64,000 nucleotides of DNA, from contig NC_087380.1 in NCBI RefSeq assembly GCF_963675165.1, forward strand, positions 4,772,571-4,836,570, read 5' to 3'. The DNA comes from Halichondria panicea (lineage: Eukaryota > Porifera > Demospongiae > Suberitida > Halichondriidae). Below are positions 1-63,200 of this stretch, piece by piece (position 1 is the stretch's first letter; every line of letters starts with the position of its first letter). The notes under the pieces were generated by a model, which worked only from the letters and a program-made list of their open reading frames with translations, did no database searches and was not told where the DNA came from. The position numbers and the translations under genes are program-made.

Positions 1-921
1 TTTCATCTCTGAGCCCTTGTTCATCATCTACACCATCTTATCCTGTGTGGGTTCGCTTTTGTGATGGCTTTAACTTACCTCACTCACTACCCGTCAGAAA
101 GAAAACCTTTGCGAATCAGCAGAAAATTTTTGCGATCTAACTGACAAGGATTGTATACTAATTGAGGTTTTATTTTTGCGAATTGATCAAAGTTCGCATA
201 TGTTTGATGCTCACCAAACATTCTAGTAATACTGTATGCATAGTGCATGTGCAAATTGGTTTTACACATGTTAGCAATAAAACTCTGTCCTGTTTTTGCC
301 ATGGGCTCTAGCCCATGAACTTGTTTTCGAATATACGCCTTCTCAACATTAGCACTTCTGGAGTTGGCACGTGATCAAAATTGTACCATCCTGACAAGAC
401 AAGACTGGCTGCTTGACAAATGAACGACTAACATAGAGGGAGCTGGCTGATCATCTCAGTAAGTTTGGAGAGAGCAAAGGAACTCATGACCAGCTACGAG
501 ATCGGTGAGTACATGCTGTTATCCATTACAGCACACACAAACAGTTAATCGATGATTTGTGGCAGAAAGTATTTTAGTTGTATAAGATCCAAGTGTAGCT
601 CTTTTTGAGTTTGGGCACTCTTGAGCACTGGCTAGCTTGGATACGAGATACTTCTCTTGAGTACATATCTTCAATGATCGACCAACCAAAGGTCCAGTAT
701 TAAGATTCAGACAGCTAGCTCAGGTGGTTAGGAACAATGAGAAATGGGGCAGCTTCATTCTGTGGTGGAAAATCAACACTCACTCTAGGCACTTGGGAAC
801 AGACCTGTTATGGTTTGTAGAGTGTACTGACTGACACCACCCTAACCCTTCTCACTTTCTCATCACTTTGCATATAGTAGCTCTAAAAGATTAATAGCCT
901 ATGTCGAAGTGTATCTGGTGT
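1..921. other. AT-rich stretch, no gene recognised
   Basis: No ORF here has recognisable protein motifs. Positions about 790-921 resemble 40950-41060, inside the spacer of the foldback element at 40115-41818, so at least that part is dispersed repeat. Confidence 0.5.
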
Positions 922-1326
922 CTCCTCAAGAGCACAGTTTGCATAATACTACAAACTATTGATATCTTTACTGACATTTTGAGTGCACACACCCCTTTTT
1001 GCTCATTACACGCCCAACTCGCAACGGATATCCCTTTCTACATGTATCTATGTTCTAATCTATCTGTTGCTAAATGCTAAATTAAGAAGTGGAGCTATAA
1101 TGGGGGGTGATTGTAAGTACTGGGCTGGTACAAGTTGTCATCTTTTAAAAATGAATTCTCCTCAAGAGCACAGTTTGCTATAATAATACAAAATATTGCT
1201 GACATTTTGAGTGCACACACCCCTTTTTGCTCATTACACGCCCAACTCGCAACGGATATTCTTTCGTGTATCTATGCTACGTGTATCTATGTTCTAATCT
1301 ATTTCTGTTGCTAAATGCTAAATTAT
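922..1326 (+). repeat. Direct repeat, two ~165-bp copies
   Basis: Positions 922-1087 and 1157-1326 are near-identical head-to-tail copies. Each begins with CTCCTCAAGAGCACAGTTTG and ends near TGCTAAATGCTAAATTA, with a small duplication of the TATCTATG word in the second. A third, diverged copy lies at about 41070-41150. This is non-coding dispersed repeat. Confidence 0.8.
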
Positions 1327-1374
1327 GTGGCTGATGAAATAGTCCTGTACAAGTTGTCATCTTTTAACAATAAT

Positions 1375-1749
1375 AGGGAAATTCCCAGGGACAGTAAATT
1401 TCATTGTAAAAAAACGTTCGGTGAGTTTCTTCAACGTCCGCTGTTTAAAGATACCCAAATTTTTACAGGTAGGTAGGGCAGAGGAAGGGTTGAAGCTGTG
1501 AAAAAAACATTTTTTTGCCCATGTTTTTCAAACATGGGCTATAGCTTAATTTAATTATTGCCGTGTTAAGTGACGCTGTCATTCTGATTCATCAGGGAGA
1601 AGACGTAGGCCATACTTAAAGAAGGGCACTGTAGCTAGCACGTGCACTGTAGCTAGTGTGTGGCGACTTGTGGCGACTTCAATCCATAGTATTATCTCTA
1701 TTTCAGGTATGTACAGCCAAGTTGGATTTTCGGCAATCATTCCTAACGA
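1375..1749 (+). repeat. Dispersed repeat R5, left fragment
   Basis: This matches the reverse complement of 12215-12700. Shared landmarks are CGGTGAGTTTCTTCAACGTC, the ATTTTTACAGGTAGGTA tract, the poly-A/T run followed by the CATGTTTTTC word, GTGACGCTGTCATTCTG and CGGCAATCATTCCTA. The match stops at the TA where the composite at 1752-8828 begins. The other half of R5 resumes at about 8831. Confidence 0.7.
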
Positions 1750-1774
1750 TACACAGTAAAAAATTTGGATTACT

Positions 1775-2679
1775 TTAACCCTTTAACCGTCGGATTCTTA
1801 GTGAAGTGAAATGTCTGTAAATTCTCTATTGGAGCAATAAAATGCCTAGCAACCATATACCAATAGAATGCCCATACCACAAGGAATAAAATGGTGCAAC
1901 ATGTGTTGCCATAACAACCATGGTTATTACGCTCACCCGTTTTTATCATTTTAAATGCTCGGCCAGCGGTGAGATAAAATCCAAAAATTTTTTTTATGGA
2001 TCAGCCTATCATATGGTATAAAGGCTTGACTAAGCTTGATTTTCACATCATATGAATGTAACAGTGCTAAGATATATTAATTTGAACGTACATGTATTAC
2101 TATATCGGTGAACGATCTATGAAAAATTTACAAGCTCACATAAAGACTGTTCATTACTGCTAATTCTATTTTAGCTATACTATACTTACTACTGTACTTA
2201 CTACTGATATTCTAGCTATACTATACTACTTGCCAGAGTCACACAGTGAGCCCTCTCCTGGTCTTTCACCGTCCTGGTCCATAGCTCTAGCGTCTAGGTC
2301 CATGTCATGCATGTCCTCAGTCCCAGACAGTTCATCAGCGTCTGGCATAAAGCTGATAGCCTTTGGGACTATCCCCTCTCCTTCATAGGCACTGTCATCA
2401 CCAGAGGAGACATCGCCATTGCTGTCCTCAAGCTGTTCAAGCACATCGGCACAAGTAAACAACCTAGCCATAGCTATAAACTTCGTGCGGTAAGATGCTA
2501 ATGAAATTTTAACATAGCAACGTGGCTTGGAAAATTCTAGACTAAATTGCACGTGATTCTACAGCTCTTCCTCTATACAGCGATGTGCGTAGTTCGAGCT
2601 ACTTTCTAAGTATCACAGAATTAGAATTTCGCAAAAAAGGTCACTATTGCGGGCCACGATCGTGCGGTTAAAGGGTTAA
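1775..2679 (-). mobile_element. piggyBac-type deletion derivative, copy A
   Basis: It is bounded by TTAA (1775-1778 and 2676-2679). The left terminus reads CCCTTTAACCGTC and the right is its near-inverse, CGGTTAAAGGG. A TTAA target duplication is the hallmark of piggyBac-like elements. Two more copies (7739-8425, 39099-39937) share both the ends and the interior. The interior keeps a short coding stretch on the minus strand that looks like the acidic start of a transposase, but the catalytic part is missing, so the element is non-autonomous. Confidence 0.75.
2226..2471 (-). pseudogene. N-terminal piggyBac-like transposase exon remnant
   Basis: From the ATG at 2471 the minus strand encodes about 81 residues beginning MARLFTCADVLEQLED, followed by a very acidic, Ser/Gly-rich tract containing GDDSAYEGEG. 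An acidic, disordered N-terminus with a short initial helix is typical of piggyBac transposases. The catalytic DDD domain and Cys-rich C-terminus are absent. The same peptide is encoded in copy C (start at 39735) and, without its start codon, in copy B. Assignment rests on the TTAA/TIR context plus composition, not on a domain match. Confidence 0.5.
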
Positions 2680-3276
2680 CCAACAAAACTTGGTTAATTT
2701 TTCACTTTCACTTGCACCACTTATACATTGGTTACTATATTGTTATGGTTGAATTATTCGTATGAAATTACTCGTATGAAATTACCCTTACATTTGGTGA
2801 AAAATCCACTAGGTGATTTCCAGTGAATATGAGCCATATTTTACTTCCCCCAGGGAAGTATGGAATATGGCTCATATTTTTACTTCCTACAAGTCATCTT
2901 GACAATTTGTACACAGTAAAATAGCAACACACACAAAGGTTTGTAGACTATGTTTTGTGCTATTATCATATTGACCTGAGCTAGCTAGCAGTCTAAGCTA
3001 CTTATTACATGTTCATGAGGCTTGAAACACTGCAGTTCAATCCTTGCTCTGTGTTTCTATGGCTCAGAGGTAGAGCAGTGTTGGTGTAGACTTGTGCAAT
3101 ACAAATTGAAAACGGCAGCTGCTGAATATTGGTGGTGGGTGGTGGGCGGCTAGCTGTTTGGAGAAGTAGCTAGCTAGCTAGCTCTCATACTTGACAGCTG
3201 TAACTGTTCTAACTGCAGGCACAAGTGGCTGTGAGAGCAAGTTTGACTGTCTCCATTGATGTTCAAATGACTTCAG

Positions 3277-15953: not shown

Positions 15954-16334
15954 TCACAGGTATATCTACTCACCTGGATGCCACAGCACTGCGTTTACAG
16001 CATGGATAGCCTTCACACAACAATATCTTGATTTAAATAGTGGCAGATTTTGCTGTTAAAGCTTCTTTGTCGAGCAAAAGCTAAGAAGCTTGAATAAGCT
16101 TGTGACTAGGTCTGCTTACCTGGATGCTCTAGCACTGCGTTTACAGCATGAGTAGCCTCCACACAACAAGTTAGTACTTTTGATAGTGGCAGCTTTCGGT
16201 GTTAAAGCTCCTTTGTCTAATAAAAGCGAGCAAAATGTAGCTTGAACAGAACTTGCACATGCGTTACTTATAACTGAAGTGATCCTGTACCAAGAACGAT
16301 GGAACAGGGTCACTAAAGTAGAAAGCTGTATATA
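15954..16334 (+). repeat. Repeat R1, copy 1, left part
   Basis: Nearly identical to 23085-23466 and to the reverse complement of about 62390-62760. It ends with GCTGTATATA at 16334, where the retrotransposon begins. In uninterrupted copies GCTGTATATA is followed directly by CCAGGAAC, which here resumes at 22751. It contains two related exon-like blocks on the minus strand (see the entry at 62306). Confidence 0.9.
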
Positions 16335-16459
16335 GTGTGGTTTAATGATAGTTAGACCGGGTTAATAAGGAGGACCGCACCGGTTTGCACATGCGCAGAT
16401 CATATTCCTACCTCGTGTATTCTACCGTGTCTTCAGGCTCGAACTGCTGTCGATATCAT
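16335..16459 (+). repeat. Split direct repeat A1
   Basis: 125 bp starting GTGTGGTTTAATGATAG and ending TGTCGATATCAT. It matches A2 with a single difference (GACCGGG here, GACCAGG in A2). It forms the left terminus of the element and lies just upstream of gag, so it probably carries the promoter or start of the genomic RNA. Confidence 0.9.
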
Positions 16460-16466
16460 AGTAGCT

Positions 16467-17856
16467 ATGACTGACGAAACTCCCCAACCACCAGTAGTGA
16501 TCGACAAAGAAGTCGTCAAGACAGCGCTGAGGGAACTGCTGCACGACATCCCCGCCTTTAGAGCGTTTTCTGAAAAAGCAGGGGAATCCTCAAGGACAAG
16601 CAGAGTCCAAGACCCTCCGGGTGAGTACCACCCAGATGAGCAATTTTACTTGGGTAATAAGCCTAGGTAACACAGCAGAATGAGAAATGAGAAATGAGAA
16701 ATGAGAGCCACCGTGAGCGGTTGGATGAGAGTGAGAAGAGTGAGAGTGAGAAGAGAGTGAGAGTGAGAAGAGAGAACGTGCGGGCATGAGGGCCCACACA
16801 GTGAGCTAGAGGGGCTAGAGTACCCCCCAACGTGGTACGAGCAGAGTGCTCCAGGTATTTGAGTCAGTGAGTATTAAAGGTCTAGAGTCCTTGAGCTATG
16901 ACCCGGGTTATGCACACAATATTGTGGCAAACTTAGCACCTACCCCTCCCACCCCTGGCACAGGAACGGAAGACGTGAGCGACTTGAACCTGCCCCTTAT
17001 AGGAGGCGGTGGAGATGGAGAGCATGGAGAGCGTGGAGACGGAGAACGACGAGTAGTCAACCCCCCAACAGAGCTCGGGACGTCCAAACCCCAGGAACCA
17101 TCCCCATTCGTCCTCGGGGAAGCGTTGCCTGTGGTCCCGGTCAGGCTGGTAAAACGAATAATCAAGGGCGAGTTCGTGGATATGAGCGAGCTCCTTAAGG
17201 ACAATATGGAGGTCCTCCGGAGGAGGAAGCAAGAGAGCGACGGGATCCCCGCACCGTACGAGCAGAGAGCGAGCAGGAGGGAGGTCCCGGACATACTTAG
17301 TTGGGTGCAGGCATTTAGCCTTTATGCGGCGGTGGTGGCAAGTCAGCACCCGAACAAAGCCAAGGAGTTGTGGGCCTATCTGGCTATCCTGGTGGGAGAG
17401 GCTCAGCGGTGTGGGGGACGTGGGTTCGTAGCATACGACTCACTGTTCCGCCAGCAGATGACGTCGTTTGAGGCAGTCGACTTCTCTAAGATCAACCAGT
17501 CACTGTATTGGACAACCTTTCTAGCACAAAGAGGAAGGGGAAAATCTTGCTCAATCTGCACGGCGTCGGATCACGGCTTAGAAGAATGCGCCCTGCAACC
17601 AAGCAGAGCGATAAGAGTGAGCAACCCGGCCCCTTCGAGAGAGGAATACCGTCCCCAGGGGTTTGAACTGCCTCGTAAGAAGCGAAGGAGGGGAGCCTGT
17701 TTTGCGTGGAATGACGGCCGATGCGAGGCGGAGAACTGCTCCTTCGAGCATGTATGCTCACGGTGTGCGGGACCTCACAAGAGATGGTCTTGCCGCTCTC
17801 AAGGGAGTGATGAGAGGAAAAGAGAGGATCCTGGAAAACCTCTGGCCATCCGCTAG
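16467..17856 (+). CDS. Gag-like protein of the YR retrotransposon
   Basis: This is probably the first gene of the element. The plus strand opens at 16467 (start MTDETPQPPVV, 66 codons). The frame stops at 16670 and resumes downstream of about 16821, running to the stop at 17856. A GT donor at 16667 joined to an AG at 16820 or 16844 keeps frame, so an intron spanning the purine-rich GAGAAATGAGA/GAGTGAGAA tract is possible. The tract lacks a pyrimidine run, so frame decay is an alternative. The larger part has an acidic/Gly-rich N-terminus, a helical middle (DILSWVQAFSLYAAVVA) and a C-terminal Cys/His array: CSICTASDHGLEEC, then CFAWNDGRCEAENCSFEHVC and CSRCAGPHKRWSC. This array is typical of DIRS/Ngaro gag and is presumed to bind RNA. 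The final residues are basic. Confidence 0.75.
16679..16790 (+). repeat. Purine-rich tandem repeats inside gag
   Basis: GAGAAATGAGAAATGAGAAA is followed by several GAGAGTGAGAAGAGTGAGA units. It lies where the gag reading frame is interrupted, either intron sequence or a repeat expansion that broke the frame. Confidence 0.8.
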
Positions 17857-18138
17857 CTGGTGCGCGGACGAGTCGTCCGATTGTTGTTTTGAGTATATAA
17901 CCAGACTGCTGACACTTAAGCCGTGAATTCACAACCAGACTTATTAGTGTTACTACGGTGTATGAATATTATTCCCTTGTTGTATGGTCAAATGAGGACC
18001 CATACGTTGCATATGTGATGATTTTGTTACTTAAGTTGGAAATAAGTAGGTAAGGGTCGTCACTAGGCGTTAGCGTAATCAAAATAATTATACCCGGGCC
18101 TGACAAAAAGGGCTAGCCCCAACACCCTTGATATAATT
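17857..18138 (+). other. Gag-RT spacer
   Basis: About 280 bp separate the gag stop from the first ATG of the RT frame. No coding motif is seen. It is AT-richer than the flanking coding DNA and may be an intergenic spacer or intron. Confidence 0.5.
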
Positions 18139-18939
18139 ATGTTAATGTGTATAGGAATGGTGGCAATGACTGAGGGCCTCTATCCCTATCGTAATGAGTT
18201 GCGAGTGTTGGAAGGAAGGAGACCCAAAGAGGGTAGCAGAGAGCTACCACCAGAGTTTGCGAAAGTAACTACCCCCTTAGTGGTCAGGGAATGGAGGACG
18301 AGTATGAGTCAACACCCGGACAAGTGGTATGCCACCTACATTGAGAGCGGCCTGCGGGAAGGTTTTAGGATTGGCTTCCGATATGAGGACTGTGTCTGCA
18401 CCTCAGTAAAAGCTAACATGCACTCAGCGGTGACGAATAGTGAGGTTATTGACAGTTATCTGGGAAAGGAACTTTCAATGGGTCGGGTGCTTGGCCCCCT
18501 TGACCCACGAGTGGGGGCACAGATGCAGGTTAGTCGGTTCGGTGTTATCCCAAAGAACCACCAACCGGGAAAGTGGAGACTAATTTTAGATCTGTCACAT
18601 CCTGCGGGTGCGAGTGTGAACGATGGTATTGAACGGGAACTGTGTTCTTTAAAGTATACCTCGGTGGACGAAGCAGTTCAAAGGTTTAGTGAATTGGGAA
18701 AGGGGGCGCTGCTTGCAAAATTGGATATTGAGAGTGCATACAGGCTGATCCCAGTTCACCCCGACGATCGTCTGTTGTTGGGTATGTCGTGGAAAGGGAA
18801 CCTCTATGCCGACGCTTCCCTGCCGTTCGGTTTAAGATCGGCTCCCGAGATTTTTAACGCCGTAGCAGATGCTTTAATGTGGATTATGGGCCAGCAGGGG
18901 ACCCGAGCCATTCACTATTTGGACGACTATTTACGTTAA
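18139..18939 (+). pseudogene. Reverse transcriptase, 5' half (cut by inversion)
   Basis: This encodes the N-terminal part of a DIRS-type RT: the thumb-proximal leader GLREGFRIGFRYED, then FGVIPKNHQPGKWRLILDLS, the first catalytic Asp in LAKLDIESAYRLIPVHP, the palm motif LPFGLRSAPEIFN, and finally HYLDDYL, which carries the catalytic Asp pair. Two codons after YLDD-Tyr the frame runs into foreign sequence (the inverted end of B1) and stops at 18937-18939. The missing continuation is encoded on the opposite strand from 22339 leftward. The start at 18139 is the first ATG in frame; several in-frame ATGs follow. Confidence 0.92.
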
Positions 18940-20320
18940 GGCCTAGGACGTAGTCACACTTATCAAAAGGATAGTGTTACAGTTCATTTAGTCTAGAGAG
19001 TAGATTACCACAAATGTGTGAGTAGTTGTACTTAAATGTAAATATCTTTTGATTGAAGTATTTCTAAAAAATGGTGTTGATACCCGTGTGTAGATGAATG
19101 ACTGAACTACAACATATCCAAAAATGTTTCCATGGAAACATAAGGTGGTGGGTTTGTGGTGATTAATAGAACAACAGCAAATTGTTATAGTGGGTAATCG
19201 GTTAGAGTAATAAAACAGTAATTTTGTACAGCTAAGGTCCTAGACTTCATCACATAATTGTTCAATGGTTTAAGTATCCTGGCCATCCCTTTATGGGTGT
19301 TACAAATGTTCACAGTGTTTATAATTCATGATTTACTGGTTTTCAGGTACACTTTTGGTTAGAGTAATAACTTTTGAAAAATTAATAGCTTAGCTTTCAA
19401 ATTTCTGTAGTAAGTTTACAGATAAATGGGCGACATTTTGATACCAAGAACATCGTATATGCTTATTCCATTGCTGAGATAACACTGAAAAGCTACATAA
19501 TTCTACTGTTTTGATGACACCAGCAGCTGCAAACCACAAACCAATGATGCTTTAATCAACCACAAACGTAATTAAAAGTGGGCGTACAGTTATTGTACGC
19601 CCACTTACGTGGTTAATTTGAGTGTCATCGATTTGTGGTTAGCAGCTTGTGATGTCATCAAAACAGTAGAAAATAGTAGAATATGCAGTTTTTCAGTGAT
19701 ATCTCAACAATAGAATAAGCATAGAGGATGTTCTTGGTATCAAAATGTAGCCCGTTTATTTGTAAACTTACCAGAGAACTTTTAAAGCTAAGCTATAAAA
19801 TTTTCAGAAGATATTACTCTAACCAAAAGTGTACCTAAAAACCGGTAAATCATGAATTATAGACACTGTGAGCATATGTAAGACCCATAAAGGGATGGTC
19901 AGGATACCTAAACCATTAAACTATTGTGTGATAAAAGTCTAAGACCTTAGCTGTTTAAAGTTAGTGTTTTATTACTCTAACCGATTACCCACTATAACAA
20001 TTTGCTGTTGTTCTATTAATCACCACAAACCCACCACCTTATGTTTCCATGGAAACATTTTTGGATATGTTGTAGTTCAGTCATTCATCTACACACGGGT
20101 ATCAACACCATTTCTTAGAAATGCTCCAATCAAAAGATATTTACATTTAAGTTCAACTACTCACACATTTGTGGTATTCTACTCTCTAGACTAAATGAAC
20201 TGTAGTTTTGGCTAAAGTACTGGACCGGAAACCCCCACCTCCACCGGAAATGACCAGGTGGTATAGGTGAAGGTTAGGGGAATCCCCCAAAACCTAGGGG
20301 AATCCCCCCAAACCGGCCCA
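18934..20320 (-). repeat. B1 repeat body, interrupted by a foldback element
   Basis: 18934-18979 and 20205-20320 (46 + 116 = 162 bp) together match B2 at 22561-22722 (162 bp) in inverted orientation with about two differences. The interruption is the TA-flanked element at 18980-20202. The last 28 bp of B1 lie outside the inversion at 22340-22367. Confidence 0.9.
18980..20202. mobile_element. 1.2-kb foldback element with TA target duplication
   Basis: It begins CAGTTCATTTAGTCTAGAGA and ends with the inverse, flanked by TA (18978-18979 and 20203-20204). The empty site, with a single TA, is present in B2 near 22677-22682. Almost the whole element is one imperfect palindrome of about 600-bp arms. 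The centre near 19577-19606 is AAGTGGGCGTACA-GTTAT-TGTACGCCCACTT. TA duplication and CAG termini fit the IS630/Tc1/mariner group or a MITE mobilised by it. No transposase ORF is present. Confidence 0.88.
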
Positions 20321-20441
20321 CAAAGGAAGGCACAGCCTGCCCCCCAAACTATGCCACCTCAGCCCAACCTGTACGCTCCCTGGGATGCATGGACTCTCCA
20401 CATCATACACATCATGATAATTATTGACAGTGACTGTGACC
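20321..20441 (-). other. 3' untranslated tract between YR stop and B1
   Basis: 121 bp between the recombinase stop and the B1 repeat. It has a C-rich run near 20337-20370 and no coding motif. Confidence 0.5.
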
Positions 20442-21401
20442 TTATGCACACAATAAACGTGAATAATTTGCTAACTGACTTCTAGGTGTCCTTATGTAGT
20501 CCAAATAGGCCACACTCCGCCATCTTCCCAGCGTTTTGATAGCCGAATCCTCAAAACCTTTAGCCGCTGCTGTGGTAGCCGCTCCAATGCGGAAGCTATG
20601 GCCGTTGTACTTGGACTCATCTACTCCTGCTGCCGACAGAGCAGCCCGGATGGCTTCTACAAACCGTAACCGGGTCAGCATACGACCATCCTTAAACTTG
20701 AACAGGGAGCCTTCTGCCCGACCCCGAAGCCGCAGATATGACAGTATTGCCTGCACTGGGCACAAATCAGAGTCCATTTTACCCAGAAATAAATCAACGC
20801 CTCGTCGAAAAGGGTCTGTTTTGGATTGCTTGATGGTGACCCGGACCACCGTGGGTAGCTTAGGGTTGTCAATCGCTATGTCGCTGACGATCAAGTGACA
20901 CGACGGGTCAAATTTATCGTCGCTGGGTACAGACATTTCCCCGATACGAAGAAAACCAAAGAAGGCCAGGCAACAAGCCGCCCAGAGCATAACCGTATCG
21001 TGGCCACCAGGGGAAGAGTCCCACACTGCCTTCATTTTCCTCAGTAGGAGGGGGGACATGGGCAGTCTTTCTCTTTTTCCCTGACACTTAGCAGCTTCGC
21101 ATCTCTTAATACCGCGTAGGGTATATTCCAATCGATGAAGCACAGATGCAAAAGGGTCTGGTTGGCTCTCCGCAATGTGCAGGAATCTGACCCCGGCAAG
21201 GTATACTTTGATAGTCTTGTGAGTGAGTCCTTCCTCGGCCAGGTAGGTCGCAAAGAGGCAACACGAGCGCTCCGAGGCAGGAACTGCTTGGACTCCACTC
21301 TCTCTGCAGAATCTCAGATAGCGCCGCTGGCCCGAACTATAGGTCCTCTGTGTGGAATCAGCTAGTCCTTTTGAGAAATACTTTTGAGAAGCTCTGTCCA
21401 A
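20442..21401 (-). CDS. Tyrosine recombinase of the retrotransposon
   Basis: An intact 319-codon ORF encoding a phage-integrase-type tyrosine recombinase, which in DIRS-order elements integrates a circular DNA intermediate without duplicating the target. The N-terminal half is a SAM-like core-binding domain (STQRTYSSGQRRYLRFC, then TIKVYLAGVRFLH). The catalytic domain shows the first Arg in FFGFLRIGEM, the Lys-bearing strand TIKQSKTDPF, the HxxR box in GHSFRIGAATTAA, GRWRS, and the nucleophile Tyr within VAYLDYIR near residue 300. It overlaps the end of the RT-RNase H frame by 40 bp in another frame, as is common in DIRS elements. No disabling change is seen. Confidence 0.93.
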   Translation of the reverse strand: MDRASQKYFSKGLADSTQRTYSSGQRRYLRFCRESGVQAVPASERSCCLFATYLAEEGLTHKTIKVYLAGVRFLHIAESQPDPFASVLHRLEYTLRGIKRCEAAKCQGKRERLPMSPLLLRKMKAVWDSSPGGHDTVMLWAACCLAFFGFLRIGEMSVPSDDKFDPSCHLIVSDIAIDNPKLPTVVRVTIKQSKTDPFRRGVDLFLGKMDSDLCPVQAILSYLRLRGRAEGSLFKFKDGRMLTRLRFVEAIRAALSAAGVDESKYNGHSFRIGAATTAAAKGFEDSAIKTLGRWRSVAYLDYIRTPRSQLANYSRLLCA

Positions 21402-22339
21402 CTTAGCGACGTCCAGTCGGGGCGTCTGGTGACCAGGACCTCCAACATCTCTGGCGGGATGACATCTGCTTGACGCCTGGCCGATGGGACCTGTGCCAGG
21501 AAGGAAGTATGATTATCTCTCGAAAGGGCATCGGCTGCCCCGTTGCACACCCCTGGTATATGCACACTCCACAGTTTAATGTCAAATGCGGCCACGAAGA
21601 AAAAGAGACACCTCAACAAATGCATAGCCAAATCGTCCTTGCAGGTGCCTGATCGAATTATGGCCACCACTGCCGCATTATCACATCTGCAACGTACGCT
21701 AGACCCGTGCCAGGATCTGCCCCACAACGCAATGCTCACTATGATTGGGAGAAGCTCTTTTACAGTTATATGAACTGTTGCCCATGAAGAGGGCCATTGT
21801 AGCTGAAACCAGTGGCCCTCCGAAGAGAAGGATCCACAACCCCAGTTGCCTGATGCGTCCGAGGTTATGGTTGCCTGCCACGCTTGGCTTGGGTGTGGGC
21901 CTGTAACTGAGACCCCGTTCCATGATTGTAAGAAGGTAGCCCACCATTGTAGGTCCGATCGGAAACCCACGTTCAACCGAATCCGATGGTGCAGTTCTTT
22001 GGCTACCATGGACAATGAAATCATTCTCCTCAAAAATGATCTTCCCGGTTTTACCACACAACACGCATGTTGCAGCTGACCGATCAGAGAGAGTAACTCT
22101 CGCTTGGAACCAGCCTTACGTTCGGACCAACCTCGGATTTCTCTCTGTAAACGCATCAGTTTTTCCGGTGGTAGTCTCACCACCCCCGCTTGGGTGTCAA
22201 GTTCAATGCCCAAGAAGGTTAACTGGCATGCAGGGCCTTCCGTTTTGTGCTTGGCGATCGGGACCCCTAAGCGATCACAGGTAGCTAGCGTCCGAGCAAG
22301 CGCCAGCTGGCATTCAGGGGTGTTGGGGGCACCAAACAA
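21362..22339 (-). pseudogene. Reverse transcriptase 3' half plus RNase H (cut by inversion)
   Basis: This 325-codon open frame lacks its own start because it continues the RT interrupted at 18933. It opens with LFGAPNTPEC, the stretch that directly follows YLDD in this family, then KTEGPACQLTFLGIELD (RT thumb region). RNase H follows: the first Asp in TITSDASGNWGCGSFS, Glu in HITVKELLPI, the second Asp in RCRCDNAAVVAII, and a terminal Asp in GVCNGAADALSRDNH. A linker leads to the overlap with the recombinase gene. The coding sequence itself carries no stop, so its loss of function is due only to the inversion. Confidence 0.92.
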
Positions 22340-22367
22340 TTCTCTCAGGAGGACCGCAGCTTATTAA
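22340..22367 (+). repeat. Last 28 bp of B1
   Basis: TTCTCTCAGGAGGACCGCAG... up to CTTATTAA, directly before A2. The same 28 bp with one change (GGT for GGA) end B2 and the whole element at 22723-22750. It was left outside the inverted segment. Confidence 0.9.
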
Positions 22368-22492
22368 GTGTGGTTTAATGATAGTTAGACCAGGTTAATA
22401 AGGAGGACCGCACCGGTTTGCACATGCGCAGATCATATTCCTACCTCGTGTATTCTACCGTGTCTTCAGGCTCGAACTGCTGTCGATATCAT
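22368..22492 (+). repeat. Split direct repeat A2
   Basis: 125 bp, one difference from A1. It lies directly after B1's last 28 bp, as in B1-A2 junctions of PAT/Ngaro-type elements. The 68 bp that follow (22493-22560), containing the near-palindrome AAGGCATGCCTT, occur only here. Confidence 0.9.
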
Positions 22493-22560: not shown

Positions 22561-22750
22561 TGGGCCGGTTTGGGGGGATTCCCCTAGGTTTTGGGGGATT
22601 CCCCTAACCTTCACTTATACCACCTGGTCATTTCCGGTGGAGGTGGGGGTTTCCGGTCCAGCACTTTAGCCAAAACTAACACTATCCTTTTGATAAGTGT
22701 GACTACGTCCTAGGCCTTAACGTTCTCTCAGGTGGACCGCAGCTTATTAA
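22561..22750 (+). repeat. Split direct repeat B2, right end of element
   Basis: Starts TGGGCCGGTTTGGGGGGATT and ends with the 28-bp terminal block. It is uninterrupted, so it serves as the empty-site reference both for the foldback element in B1 and for the inversion join. Confidence 0.9.
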
Positions 22751-23078
22751 CCAGGAACAATGGAACAGGGTCACTAAAGTAGGAGCTTGAATTATAGCTC
22801 CTGCTGCTGACTGGGATCCTACTCCATGCAGAACCTGGAGCTATACTTCTCTGAGACTCCAGGCTTCTTTACTGTGATCCTAATCCACAGTGCATATCAT
22901 CTATAGTAGTCTACCACTACCTGTTCTCAGCATGCCTCCAGTCTGGTTTAGTTTTATTGCTCCTGAGTTGCTGTGCAAGTCATACATGATAACAACATCA
23001 CTATATGCACTGCATTATATTTCTGGTTTCTTTATAATCAGCCGAGGGTTTGCACTTTAGTGCTCTAGTTTGTTTGTC
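22751..23078 (+). repeat. Repeat R1, copy 1, right part
   Basis: Resumes with CCAGGAACAATGG right after the retrotransposon. It is nearly identical to 23467-23800 and to the inverse of 62070-62390. Confidence 0.9.
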
Positions 23079-23084
23079 TGTTTG

Positions 23085-23800
23085 TCACGAGTATATCTAC
23101 TCACCTGGATGCCATAGCGCTGCGTTTGCAGCATAGGTAGCCTTCACATAACAATATCTTGGTTTAAATAGTGGCAGATTTTGATGTTAAAGCTTCTTTG
23201 TCGAGCAAAAGCTAAGAAGCTTAAATAAGCTTGTGACTAGGTCTGCTTACCTGGATGTTCTAGCACTGCGTTTACAGCATGAGTAGCCTCCACACAACAA
23301 GTTAGTACTTTTGATAGTGGCAGCTTTCGGTGTTAAAGCTTCTTTGTCTAATAAAAGCGAGCAAAATGTAGCTTGAACAGAACTTGCACATGTGTTACTT
23401 ATAACTGAAGTGATCCTGTACCAAGAACGATGGAACAGGGTCACTAAAGTAGAAAGCTGTATATACCAGGAACAATGGAACAGGGTCACTAAAGTAGAAG
23501 CTTAAATTATAGCTCCTGCTGCTGACTGGGATCCTACTCTATGCAGAACCTGGAGCCAGACTTCTCTGAGACTCCAGGCTTCTTTACTGTGATCCTAATC
23601 CACAGTGCATATATCTATAGTATCACTACCTGTTCTCAAATGTTTCAGCATGCCTCCAGTCTGGTTTAGTTTTATTGCTCCTGAATTGCTGTGCAAGTCA
23701 TACATGATAACAACATCACTATAATTATGGACTGCATTATATTTCTGGTTTCTTTATAATCATGTCACCAGCCGAGGGTTTGCACTTTAGCGCTCTAGTT
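23085..23800 (+). repeat. Repeat R1, copy 2 (uninterrupted)
   Basis: A second head-to-tail R1 unit of about 715 bp. At 23457-23480 GCTGTATATA is followed directly by CCAGGAACAATGG. This is the empty counterpart of the retrotransposon insertion site. Confidence 0.9.
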
Positions 23801-62061: not shown

Positions 62062-62830
62062 CAATCTGAACTAGAGCACTAAAGTGCAAACCCTCGGCTG
62101 GTGACATGATTAAAAAGAAACCAGAAATATAATGCAGTGCATATAGTGATGTTGTTATCATGTATGACTTGCACAGCAACTCAGGAGCAATAAAACTAAA
62201 CCAGACTGGAGGCATGCTGAAACATTTGAGAACAGGTAGTGGTACTATAGATATATGCACTGTGGATTAGGATCACAGTAAAGAAGCCTGGAGTCTCAGA
62301 GAAGTATGGCTCCAGGTCCTGCATGGAGTAGGATCCCAGTCAGCAGCAGGAGCTATAATTCAAGCTTCTACTTTAGTGACCATTGTTCCTGGTATATACA
62401 GCTTTCTACTTTAGTGACCCTGTTCCATCGTTCTTGGTACAGGATCACTTCAGTTATAAGTAACGCATGTGCAAGTTCTGTTCAAGCTACATTTTGCTCG
62501 CTTTTATTAGACAAAGGAGCTTTAACACCGAAAGCTGCCACTATCAAAAGTACTAACTTGTTGTGTGGAGGCTACTCATGCTGTAAACGCAGTGCTAGAA
62601 CATCCAGGTAAGCAGACCTAGTCACAAGCTTCTTAGCTTTTGCTCGACAAAGAAGCTTTAATATCAAAATCTGCCACTATTTAAACCAAGATATTGTTCT
62701 GTGAAGGCTACCTATGCTGCAAACACAGCGCTATGGCATCCAGGTGAGTAGATATACTCGTCACAAACAGACAAACAAACAAACAAACAAACCAACAGAC
62801 TACTATACCCGTGGCCGCCCACGCGCGCCT
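62062..62830 (-). repeat. Repeat R1, copy 3 (inverted)
   Basis: Inverse of 23085-23800 plus the margin block CCCGTGGCCGCCCACGCGCG at 62809. It shows the R1 insertion site intact (CCTGGTATATACAGC near 62391), a second empty site for the retrotransposon. Confidence 0.88.
62306..62611 (+). other. Exon-like blocks within R1
   Basis: In this orientation R1 has an open frame ending ...LLCGGYSCCKRSARTSR. An exact donor CATCCAG|GTAAGCAG (62608) precedes the last residues' stop. A second, paralogous block follows (about 62636-62743) with CLLDKEAL... and ...CCKHSAMASR and a donor CATCCAG|GTGAGTAG at 62744. The two blocks of about 105 bp are tandem duplicates that conserve both the peptide end and the donor, in all three R1 copies. 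They may be exons of a lost or unrecognised gene captured in R1. No function is assigned. Confidence 0.4.
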
Positions 62831-63200
62831 CGGATAATTATACGAAATTGTATAACAATGACGATAATATTATGGTTTGTGCGGACTTCGTTAGGGATGT
62901 TAGCATCTCATTCAACACGCACGAAGAAAAATTAATGATCTTAAACTCTATCTGCTACAATTGACTATAAGTTAGACTAACTAATCCTGCACTATAGTAC
63001 TAATCTTTACACTATCCTTGTAATAATTGGGGCGAGCGAAGCGAGTCCTTTCCTAGTGATGAACGTTGCAATTTTGTCTGTGTGTGTGTCTGTCTGTCTG
63101 TCATACCAGCACAACATTTGTTTTTTGTACTCGTGACCATTTACCAACTTTTACGTGGAGGTTGCGCATGGGCACAAGAGCTAGCTACACTCAGGAACGA
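62831..63200. other. No gene recognised
   Basis: A short TG/TC-rich tract (GTGTGTGTGTCTGTCTGTC) lies at 63078-63100. GGCGAGCGAAGCGAG at 63031 is a partial palindrome. Confidence 0.4.

What the first reader, a model, noticed from the sequence alone, without database searches (positions are those of the whole stretch)
18934..22339. Base-exact inversion splits a YR retrotransposon RT gene just after its catalytic YLDD
The plus-strand RT ends two codons after YLDD-Tyr, and the next RT motif starts at the far end of a 3,406-bp segment on the minus strand. Turning the segment around rejoins the frame codon for codon. It also recreates, on the other side, the exact join seen undisturbed in B2 (22722/22723). 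All other coding sequence is open and A/B repeats are 98-99% identical, so the inversion looks young and may be the only lesion in RT. No inverted homology is visible at the breakpoints, so the mechanism is open: recombinase activity, two-break repair, or misassembly around the foldback in B1.
Basis: partly seen in the sequence, partly recalled or inferred. Interest (0 to 1): 0.75.

Follow-up and report, generated by a model that had tools for sequence, protein, structure and literature searches.

The report
One inverted, broken Ngaro-type retrotransposon copy
One of four near-identical copies of a mobile genetic element in this genome has about half of its length flipped end for end at two exact points, which breaks its copying enzyme; it looks like a single accidental rearrangement, not a new kind of element.

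Summary
Searches of the window's genome found four near-identical copies of this tyrosine-recombinase (YR) retrotransposon. In the other three, window base 18933 is followed directly by the complement of 22340, and the B end continues as in B2. Only the window copy is flipped. The joins are reciprocal, no base is lost or gained, and they share one base, which 43% of random break pairs do. Genome-wide, 43 of 102 RT matches have a YR match within 8 kb; 42 are on the same strand and the exception is this copy. So it is one rearranged, inactivated copy of a collinear family.

Best mechanism: two breaks rejoined by end joining (inferred). The element's own recombinase is not supported: its natural crossover (B1/A2) lies 27 bp from one break, and the break sites rank only 562nd to 8,100th of 10,046 positions with a motif of five junctions. 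Misassembly is unlikely but untested (no reads). A 1.2-kb foldback with TA flanks lies about 45 bp from one break and may have promoted it. Flipped YR domains are known as fixed family features (Kangaroo, a Daphnia PAT element). Here one inversion also turned the split direct B repeat into an inverted one.

The parts
16334..16459 (+). A1, left terminal part of the split direct repeat (left join ...GTATAT|AGTGTGG)
   Evidence: 97-98% to the A2 region; left junctions compared with L005, L007 and L006 (L011)
16819..17856 (+). gag-like stop-free frame, 345 aa, with a Cys/His-rich C-terminal part (read by eye)
   Evidence: no Pfam family at E<=0.01, only a chance-level match at E 0.37
18088..18939 (+). 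stop-free frame carrying the 5' part of RT, through YLDD; ends at a stop just past the inversion break
   Evidence: Pfam RVT_1 E 8.7e-9 for 18160-18936
18934..22339 (-). inverted segment, 3,406 bp; ends ambiguous by one base (18933/22340)
   Evidence: against three collinear paralogues
18933..18979 (-). end part of B1, inverted; 100% to the complement of 22677-22723 (18933 itself is the ambiguous base)
18980..20202 (+). foldback (long inverted-repeat) element inserted in B1, flanked by TA; absent from B2 and from the B copies of L005-L007
   Evidence: repeat family, 40 scored of 624 first-look candidates in G000
20203..20320 (-). remaining B1 part, inverted; 98% to the complement of 22561-22678
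20442..21512 (-). tyrosine recombinase stop-free frame, 356 aa, inverted with the segment
   Evidence: weak Pfam phage-integrase matches, E 9.5e-5 to 0.0024, below Pfam's cut-offs
21362..22339 (-). 3' part of RT and RNase H-like region, inverted
   Evidence: RNase H motifs read by eye from recalled motifs, no RNase H match in Pfam
22340..22366 (+). last 27 bp of B1, left outside the inversion
   Evidence: 22340-22367 matches 22723-22750 at 96%, 1 mismatch in 28
22367..22492 (+). A2, internal part of the split direct repeat
22561..22750 (+). B2, right terminal repeat, undisturbed; right join ...CTTATTAA|C

Best explanation
This is one copy of a low-copy, structurally Ngaro-like YR retrotransposon (A1 - gag - RT/RNase H - YR - B1 A2 B2) in a 131-Mb genome. 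In this copy alone among those found, a 3.4-kb segment, from just after the RT catalytic YLDD to 27 bp before the B1/A2 crossover, was cut by two double-strand breaks and rejoined in reverse by end joining, without loss or gain of bases. Shown: collinear order in the other copies, base-exact reciprocal joins, one shared base, no second inverted copy detected. Inferred: that the breaks were chance breaks joined by non-homologous end joining, that this happened in the host chromosome or in the element's DNA intermediate before integration, and that the copy can no longer make a whole RT or read YR in the normal transcript.
For: Collinear order in L005, L006 and L007 at 98.5-99.8% identity. Join probe found in full only in the window. 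42 of 43 RT/YR pairs on the same strand, the exception being the window. No homology between break regions: best local score 5 in either orientation, random mean 6.1, 94% of 1,000 random pairs doing as well; total shared bases 1, and 43% of 20,000 random pairs share at least 1. Few private changes in this copy (8 in 2,494 alignment columns, 2 in 2,026), so the flip is no older than a young copy.
Against: End joining often leaves small deletions or insertions (general knowledge), and here there are none. One break lies about 45 bp from a 1.2-kb palindrome and inside the terminal repeat, so the breaks may not be random. No reads were examined, so the arrangement rests on one assembly.
Confidence: 0.68

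Rival explanations
1. The 1.2-kb foldback next to the B1 break extruded a hairpin or cruciform, was cut or stalled replication, and supplied one of the two breaks. This is a special case of the best explanation.
For: The foldback (18980-20202) ends about 45 bp from the left break; none of the three other near-identical copies carries it there and none of them is inverted.
Against: The break is outside the palindrome and the joins carry no palindrome sequence. Whether the foldback came before the inversion is unknown. A break this near an end is only mildly unlikely by chance (my rough estimate of a few per cent; not a tool result).
Confidence: 0.12
2. Misassembly: the real locus is collinear and the contig was joined wrongly.
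For: The region holds a foldback and, as assembled, inverted B copies of 118 + 47 bp; no reads could be examined.
Against: Assembly flips usually arise at inverted repeats (general knowledge); here the break regions share one base, and a flip between the inverted B copies would have other ends. Both joins are reciprocal to the base. The assembly is contiguous (39 contigs, 131 Mb).
Confidence: 0.09
3. The element's own YR recombined a pseudo-site in RT with a site in B1 in inverted orientation.
For: The inversion and the natural integration junctions can both be written as a crossover at a single shared A, and the A at the B1 break (minus strand) is followed by C, as in 4 of 5 distinct right ends read in this family (window/L007 site, L005, L006, L013; not L017). 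In register, the RT site matches the focal core at 8 of 11 positions, 16 of 9,987 positions doing as well. This was chosen after the fact from four readings and nine widths; other widths gave ranks from 15 to 3,044 for the same reading.
Against: The natural crossover is 27 bp from the B1 break. A motif from five junctions, the focal one included (TTAA - six bases - TTTAA), ranks the true core 1 of 10,046 (partly by construction) but the breaks 562, 1,778, 6,550 and 8,100; with shifts of up to 3 bases the best break rank is 73. In five right ends of relatives the TTAA is not followed by C in any. No second RT/YR pair is inverted.
Confidence: 0.06
4. Template switching during reverse transcription or DNA repair copied the segment in reverse.
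For: Such elements replicate through reverse transcription, and inversions of copied DNA are known for other retroelements (general knowledge).
Against: Two switches would have to be exactly reciprocal, with no duplication or loss; one shared base gives little to prime from.
Confidence: 0.05

Closest known systems
Ngaro YR retrotransposons
   Same: A-pol-B-A-B repeat order (criterion from passages of PMC3783388); gag, RT/RNase H, YR on one strand in the collinear copies; no methyltransferase detected, and the stop-free RT/RNase H and YR frames overlap, leaving no room for one between them
   Different: Phylogenetic placement was not tested; the overlap of RT/RNase H and YR frames is something that PMC3266345 (passages) says Ngaro and Viper do not usually show; the window copy is inverted and broken
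Kangaroo (Volvox) and the inverted-YR PAT element of Daphnia pulex (PMC4157794, passages)
   Same: YR lies on the strand opposite to RT and split direct repeats are present
   Different: There the flip is described for whole element groups; here it is one copy of four, RT is cut in two, and the relatives are collinear
Balanced inversions joined by end joining (search listing only)
   Same: Two breaks, reciprocal joins, little or no microhomology (general knowledge)
   Different: Small (3.4 kb) and inside one mobile element

Membership tests
Ngaro | Split direct repeats in A-pol-B-A-B order | tested here: met
   A1/A2 and B1/B2 in the window (B1 inverted) and in L005; L006 has B1, A2, B2 with its A1 displaced by an insertion; L007 has only one B and no A2
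Ngaro | RT and RNase H | tested here: inconclusive
   RVT_1 E 8.7e-9 for the 5' part; RNase H motifs seen by eye only, no RNase H match in Pfam
Ngaro | Tyrosine recombinase | tested here: met
   Phage_integrase E 8.5e-4 and SAM-like N-terminal domain E 9.5e-5, both under Pfam's cut-offs; catalytic residues read by eye from recalled motifs
Ngaro | No methyltransferase domain (separates Ngaro from DIRS/PAT) | tested here: met
   No methyltransferase model among the Pfam matches at E<=1 in the gag, 3' RT/RNase H and YR frames; stop-free frames of RT/RNase H and YR overlap in L005, L006 and L007
Ngaro | Position in RT or YR tree | not tested
   No reference set of eukaryotic elements was available
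Kangaroo-type (fixed inverted YR) | YR inverted in the family as a whole | tested here: not met
   42 of 43 RT/YR pairs on the same strand; the window copy is the only exception and its RT is split
Inversion catalysed by the element's YR | Breaks at the recombinase's core sites | tested here: not met
   B1 break 27 bp from the core; motif ranks 562-8,100 of 10,046 in register, best 73 with shifts of up to 3 bases

The most novel reading that the evidence does not exclude
The element's own tyrosine recombinase made the inversion by off-site recombination between a pseudo-core in RT and a site in B1. One enzymatic step would then both flip YR and turn a split direct repeat into an inverted repeat. 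PMC4157794 (passages) infers repeated YR inversions in these elements and says that intermediate forms between split direct and inverted repeats are not observed; this copy would be a snapshot of the step and a pointer to its enzyme.
Probability: 0.06. Interest if true: 0.6.

Novelty: new member of a known kind. Interest (0 to 1): 0.25.

Why it matters
It is a clean natural example of how a YR retrotransposon copy is inactivated by one small inversion, with the collinear order documented by three near-identical copies. It also shows that a single inversion can flip YR and convert the B direct repeats into inverted repeats, the kind of step invoked to explain the structural diversity of these elements. 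It does not reveal a new system.

Tried and rejected
Rejected: normal family architecture. Rejected: insertion of a second element into RT plus deletion, because both joins are reciprocal to the base. Rejected: recombination between inverted repeats, because no homology lies at the breaks. Rejected: transposition-linked inversion by the foldback, because the break is about 45 bp outside it and its TA flanks are undisturbed. Weak lead: resemblance of the RT break to the focal core (16 of 9,987 at the width of 11) did not hold with the motif from five junctions. Led nowhere: IMG/VR scan for relatives of the RT (2 stretches matched a pattern, none confirmed); Pfam at lenient threshold for gag and RNase H.

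Dating the inversion relative to integration through L007 also led nowhere. Window and L007 sit at the same base of a satellite-like repeat. The right flanks differ at 12 of 295 aligned columns plus 7 gap columns, against 21 of 4,481 for the element, which suggests separate insertions. Against that, the left flanks differ at only 4 of 398 plus 2 gaps, and the L007 right flank is the closest by identity of the units compared (93.6%, though over 290 of 317 bases). So this stays open.

Split-repeat comparison: 12 other loci were fetched and compared with themselves. Junctions were usable in 5 of 12 (L021, L023, L027, L028, L030); L023 and L027 share a junction, so the motif holds four relatives plus the focal core. 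L024 was printed but not used; the other 6 gave no clear pair.

Pairing of RT and YR: one search used 45 of 102 RT matches and 47 of 85 YR matches (33 same strand, 1 opposite, 11 without YR). On checking I repeated it with 102 of 102 and 85 of 85: 42 same, 1 opposite, 59 without a YR within 8 kb (many of these are weak matches of about 30-36% identity). Several loci give two or three RT pieces, so the 43 pairs are about 34 loci.
Full report
What is there. The window is C4:4772571-4836570 of a 131.5-Mb genome in 39 contigs. Between about 16334 and 22750 lies a tyrosine-recombinase retrotransposon with split direct repeats: A1 (16334-16459), a gag-like frame (16819-17856), the 5' part of RT (frame 18088-18939, Pfam RVT_1 E 8.7e-9), then on the minus strand a YR frame (20442-21512) and the 3' part of RT with an RNase H-like region (21362-22339), then A2 (22367-22492) and B2 (22561-22750). 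B1 is present but mostly inverted, and split by a foldback of about 1.2 kb (18980-20202).

Is the inversion there as sequence? A 535-bp RT probe (18400-18934) finds five places in the genome. The window is one; three others match at 99-100% and stop at 18933; the fifth is a degraded relative (80%) that also stops at 18933. Stretches of 9 kb around the four others were read. In L005, L006 and L007 the sequence matching the window up to 18933 is followed immediately by the complement of 22340 down to 20203, then by the B end and the sequence from 22340 onward; in L007 what follows is the satellite flank, because that copy has one B only. The 45 letters on each side of the RT site are identical in these three and the RT frame continues through it; the degraded L008 is collinear there too but its frame is broken. 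The B site reads ...CCTTAACG|TTCTCTCAGG in L005, L006, L007 and in the window's own B2. So the window holds an exact, reciprocal inversion of 18934-22339, with one base of ambiguity.

Is it the family's normal form? No. A 120-bp probe across the left join matches in full only in the window; the other 12 matched places cover only its RT part (4) or only its B part (8). The 3' RT probe and the YR probe each find the same four copies plus weaker relatives. With protein queries there are 102 RT and 85 YR matches. Of the 102 RT matches 43 have a YR match within 8 kb, 42 on the same strand and 1, the window, on the opposite strand (a first pass with 45 and 47 of them gave 33 and 1). The 43 pairs are about 34 loci. 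Searches in this genome score only the best candidates, so counts are lower bounds.

How young? In the gag-RT part the four copies differ from each other at 13-18 of about 2,470 sites, in the RT-YR part at 4-12 of about 2,010; the window has 8 and 2 private changes. Few changes are shared by pairs (2 in the first part, none in the second), so the four copies form nearly a star. The inversion is therefore no older than this copy. The foldback is a dispersed repeat with TA on both sides (TTA|CAGTTC...GAACTG|TAG, against a single TA in the complement of B2); one other copy (L012) is 99% identical over its full length, and the search scored 40 of 624 first-look candidates. It is absent from the B copies of the other three elements.

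Mechanism. The break regions share no homology: local similarity score 5 in either orientation, against a mean of 6.1 for random pairs, 94% of which do as well; the joins share one base, and 43% of 20,000 random break pairs share at least one. This suits end joining of two breaks, which is an inference. The recombinase was examined further because one break lies near the element's recombination region. The natural crossover, seen from left ends, right ends and the B1/A2 junction, lies in CTTATTA.A.GTGTGG, 27 bp from the break. Relatives (5 of 12 loci usable) share the junction form TTAA - six bases - TTTAA. Scored with a motif of the focal core and four relatives, the focal core ranks 1 of 10,046 positions (partly by construction), the RT break 562 and 1,778 on the two strands, the B1 break 6,550 and 8,100; with shifts of up to 3 bases the best rank at a break is 73.

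For the recombinase stand a post hoc resemblance of the RT site to the focal core (8 of 11 in register; 16 of 9,987 positions do as well; other widths 15 to 3,044) and the C that follows the crossover base in the minus-strand B1 site as in 4 of 5 distinct right ends of this family. That C is not seen after TTAA in any of five right ends of relatives. I hold recombinase action at about 6%.

Misassembly is unlikely because assembly flips usually arise at inverted repeats and these breaks have none, but I had no reads. The palindrome about 45 bp from the break could have promoted it; the order of the two events is unknown.

Comparison with the known. By repeat order and lack of a detected methyltransferase the element is Ngaro-like (criteria from passages of PMC3783388, PMC4157794 and PMC3266345). 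The overlap of RT/RNase H and YR frames is said in PMC3266345 to be unusual for Ngaro, and no tree was made, so the label is structural. Inverted YR domains occur as group traits in Kangaroo and in a Daphnia pulex PAT element; PMC4157794 infers that YR inversion occurred more than once and says of the change from split direct to inverted repeats that intermediate forms are not observed, possibly for inviability. The window copy is a single-step product of that general kind: YR flipped, B1 and B2 turned into inverted repeats, and RT cut in two. Three literature searches (15 of 30, 10 of 25 and 10 of 18 papers listed, titles and abstract openings seen) showed no report of a single-copy inversion of this kind; three papers were opened, by passages only, so this is no proof of absence.

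Verdict. Confirmed observation, ordinary explanation: one inactivated, inverted copy of a low-copy family. Interest 0.25.

Noticed in passing
16329-16334 and 22750-22751; L007 (C4:3261200-3270200): The window copy and L007 are inserted at the same base of an abundant satellite-like repeat (1,155 first-look candidates, 40 scored). Right flanks differ more (12 mismatches in 295 columns) than the elements (21 of 4,481), left flanks only slightly more (4 in 398), so two insertions at a preferred site are suggested but not shown.
   Followed up: partly
L013 (C1:3592400-3593060) and L017 (C6:1705450-1706520) against window 22717-22725: More diverged relatives differ by an insertion/deletion exactly at the B position where the inversion broke (GGCCTTATACATTTAAAGG|TTCTC against GGCCTTAACG|TTCTC).
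   Followed up: no
L007 (C4:3261200-3270200): This copy has A1, the coding part and a single B, without A2 and a second B, as if B1 and B2 had recombined.
   Followed up: no
L006/L011 (C17, about 2205671-2211023): The A1 of this copy is separated from the rest by an insertion of about 5.3 kb, with a short stretch (ATATCATAGTAG) present on both sides.
   Followed up: partly
L013 (C1:3592536-3592912): A short A-B unit, 83-84% to A2-B2, matched without the coding region, as from recombination between A copies or a non-autonomous form.
   Followed up: no
L021, L023, L027, L028, L030: B1/A2 junctions of related families share TTAA - six bases - TTTAA, a possible recombinase core for this clade.
   Followed up: partly
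22741-23800 and 62069-62842: Satellite-like repeat with internal sub-repeats of about 117 bp, also present near the right end of the window on the other strand.
   Followed up: no
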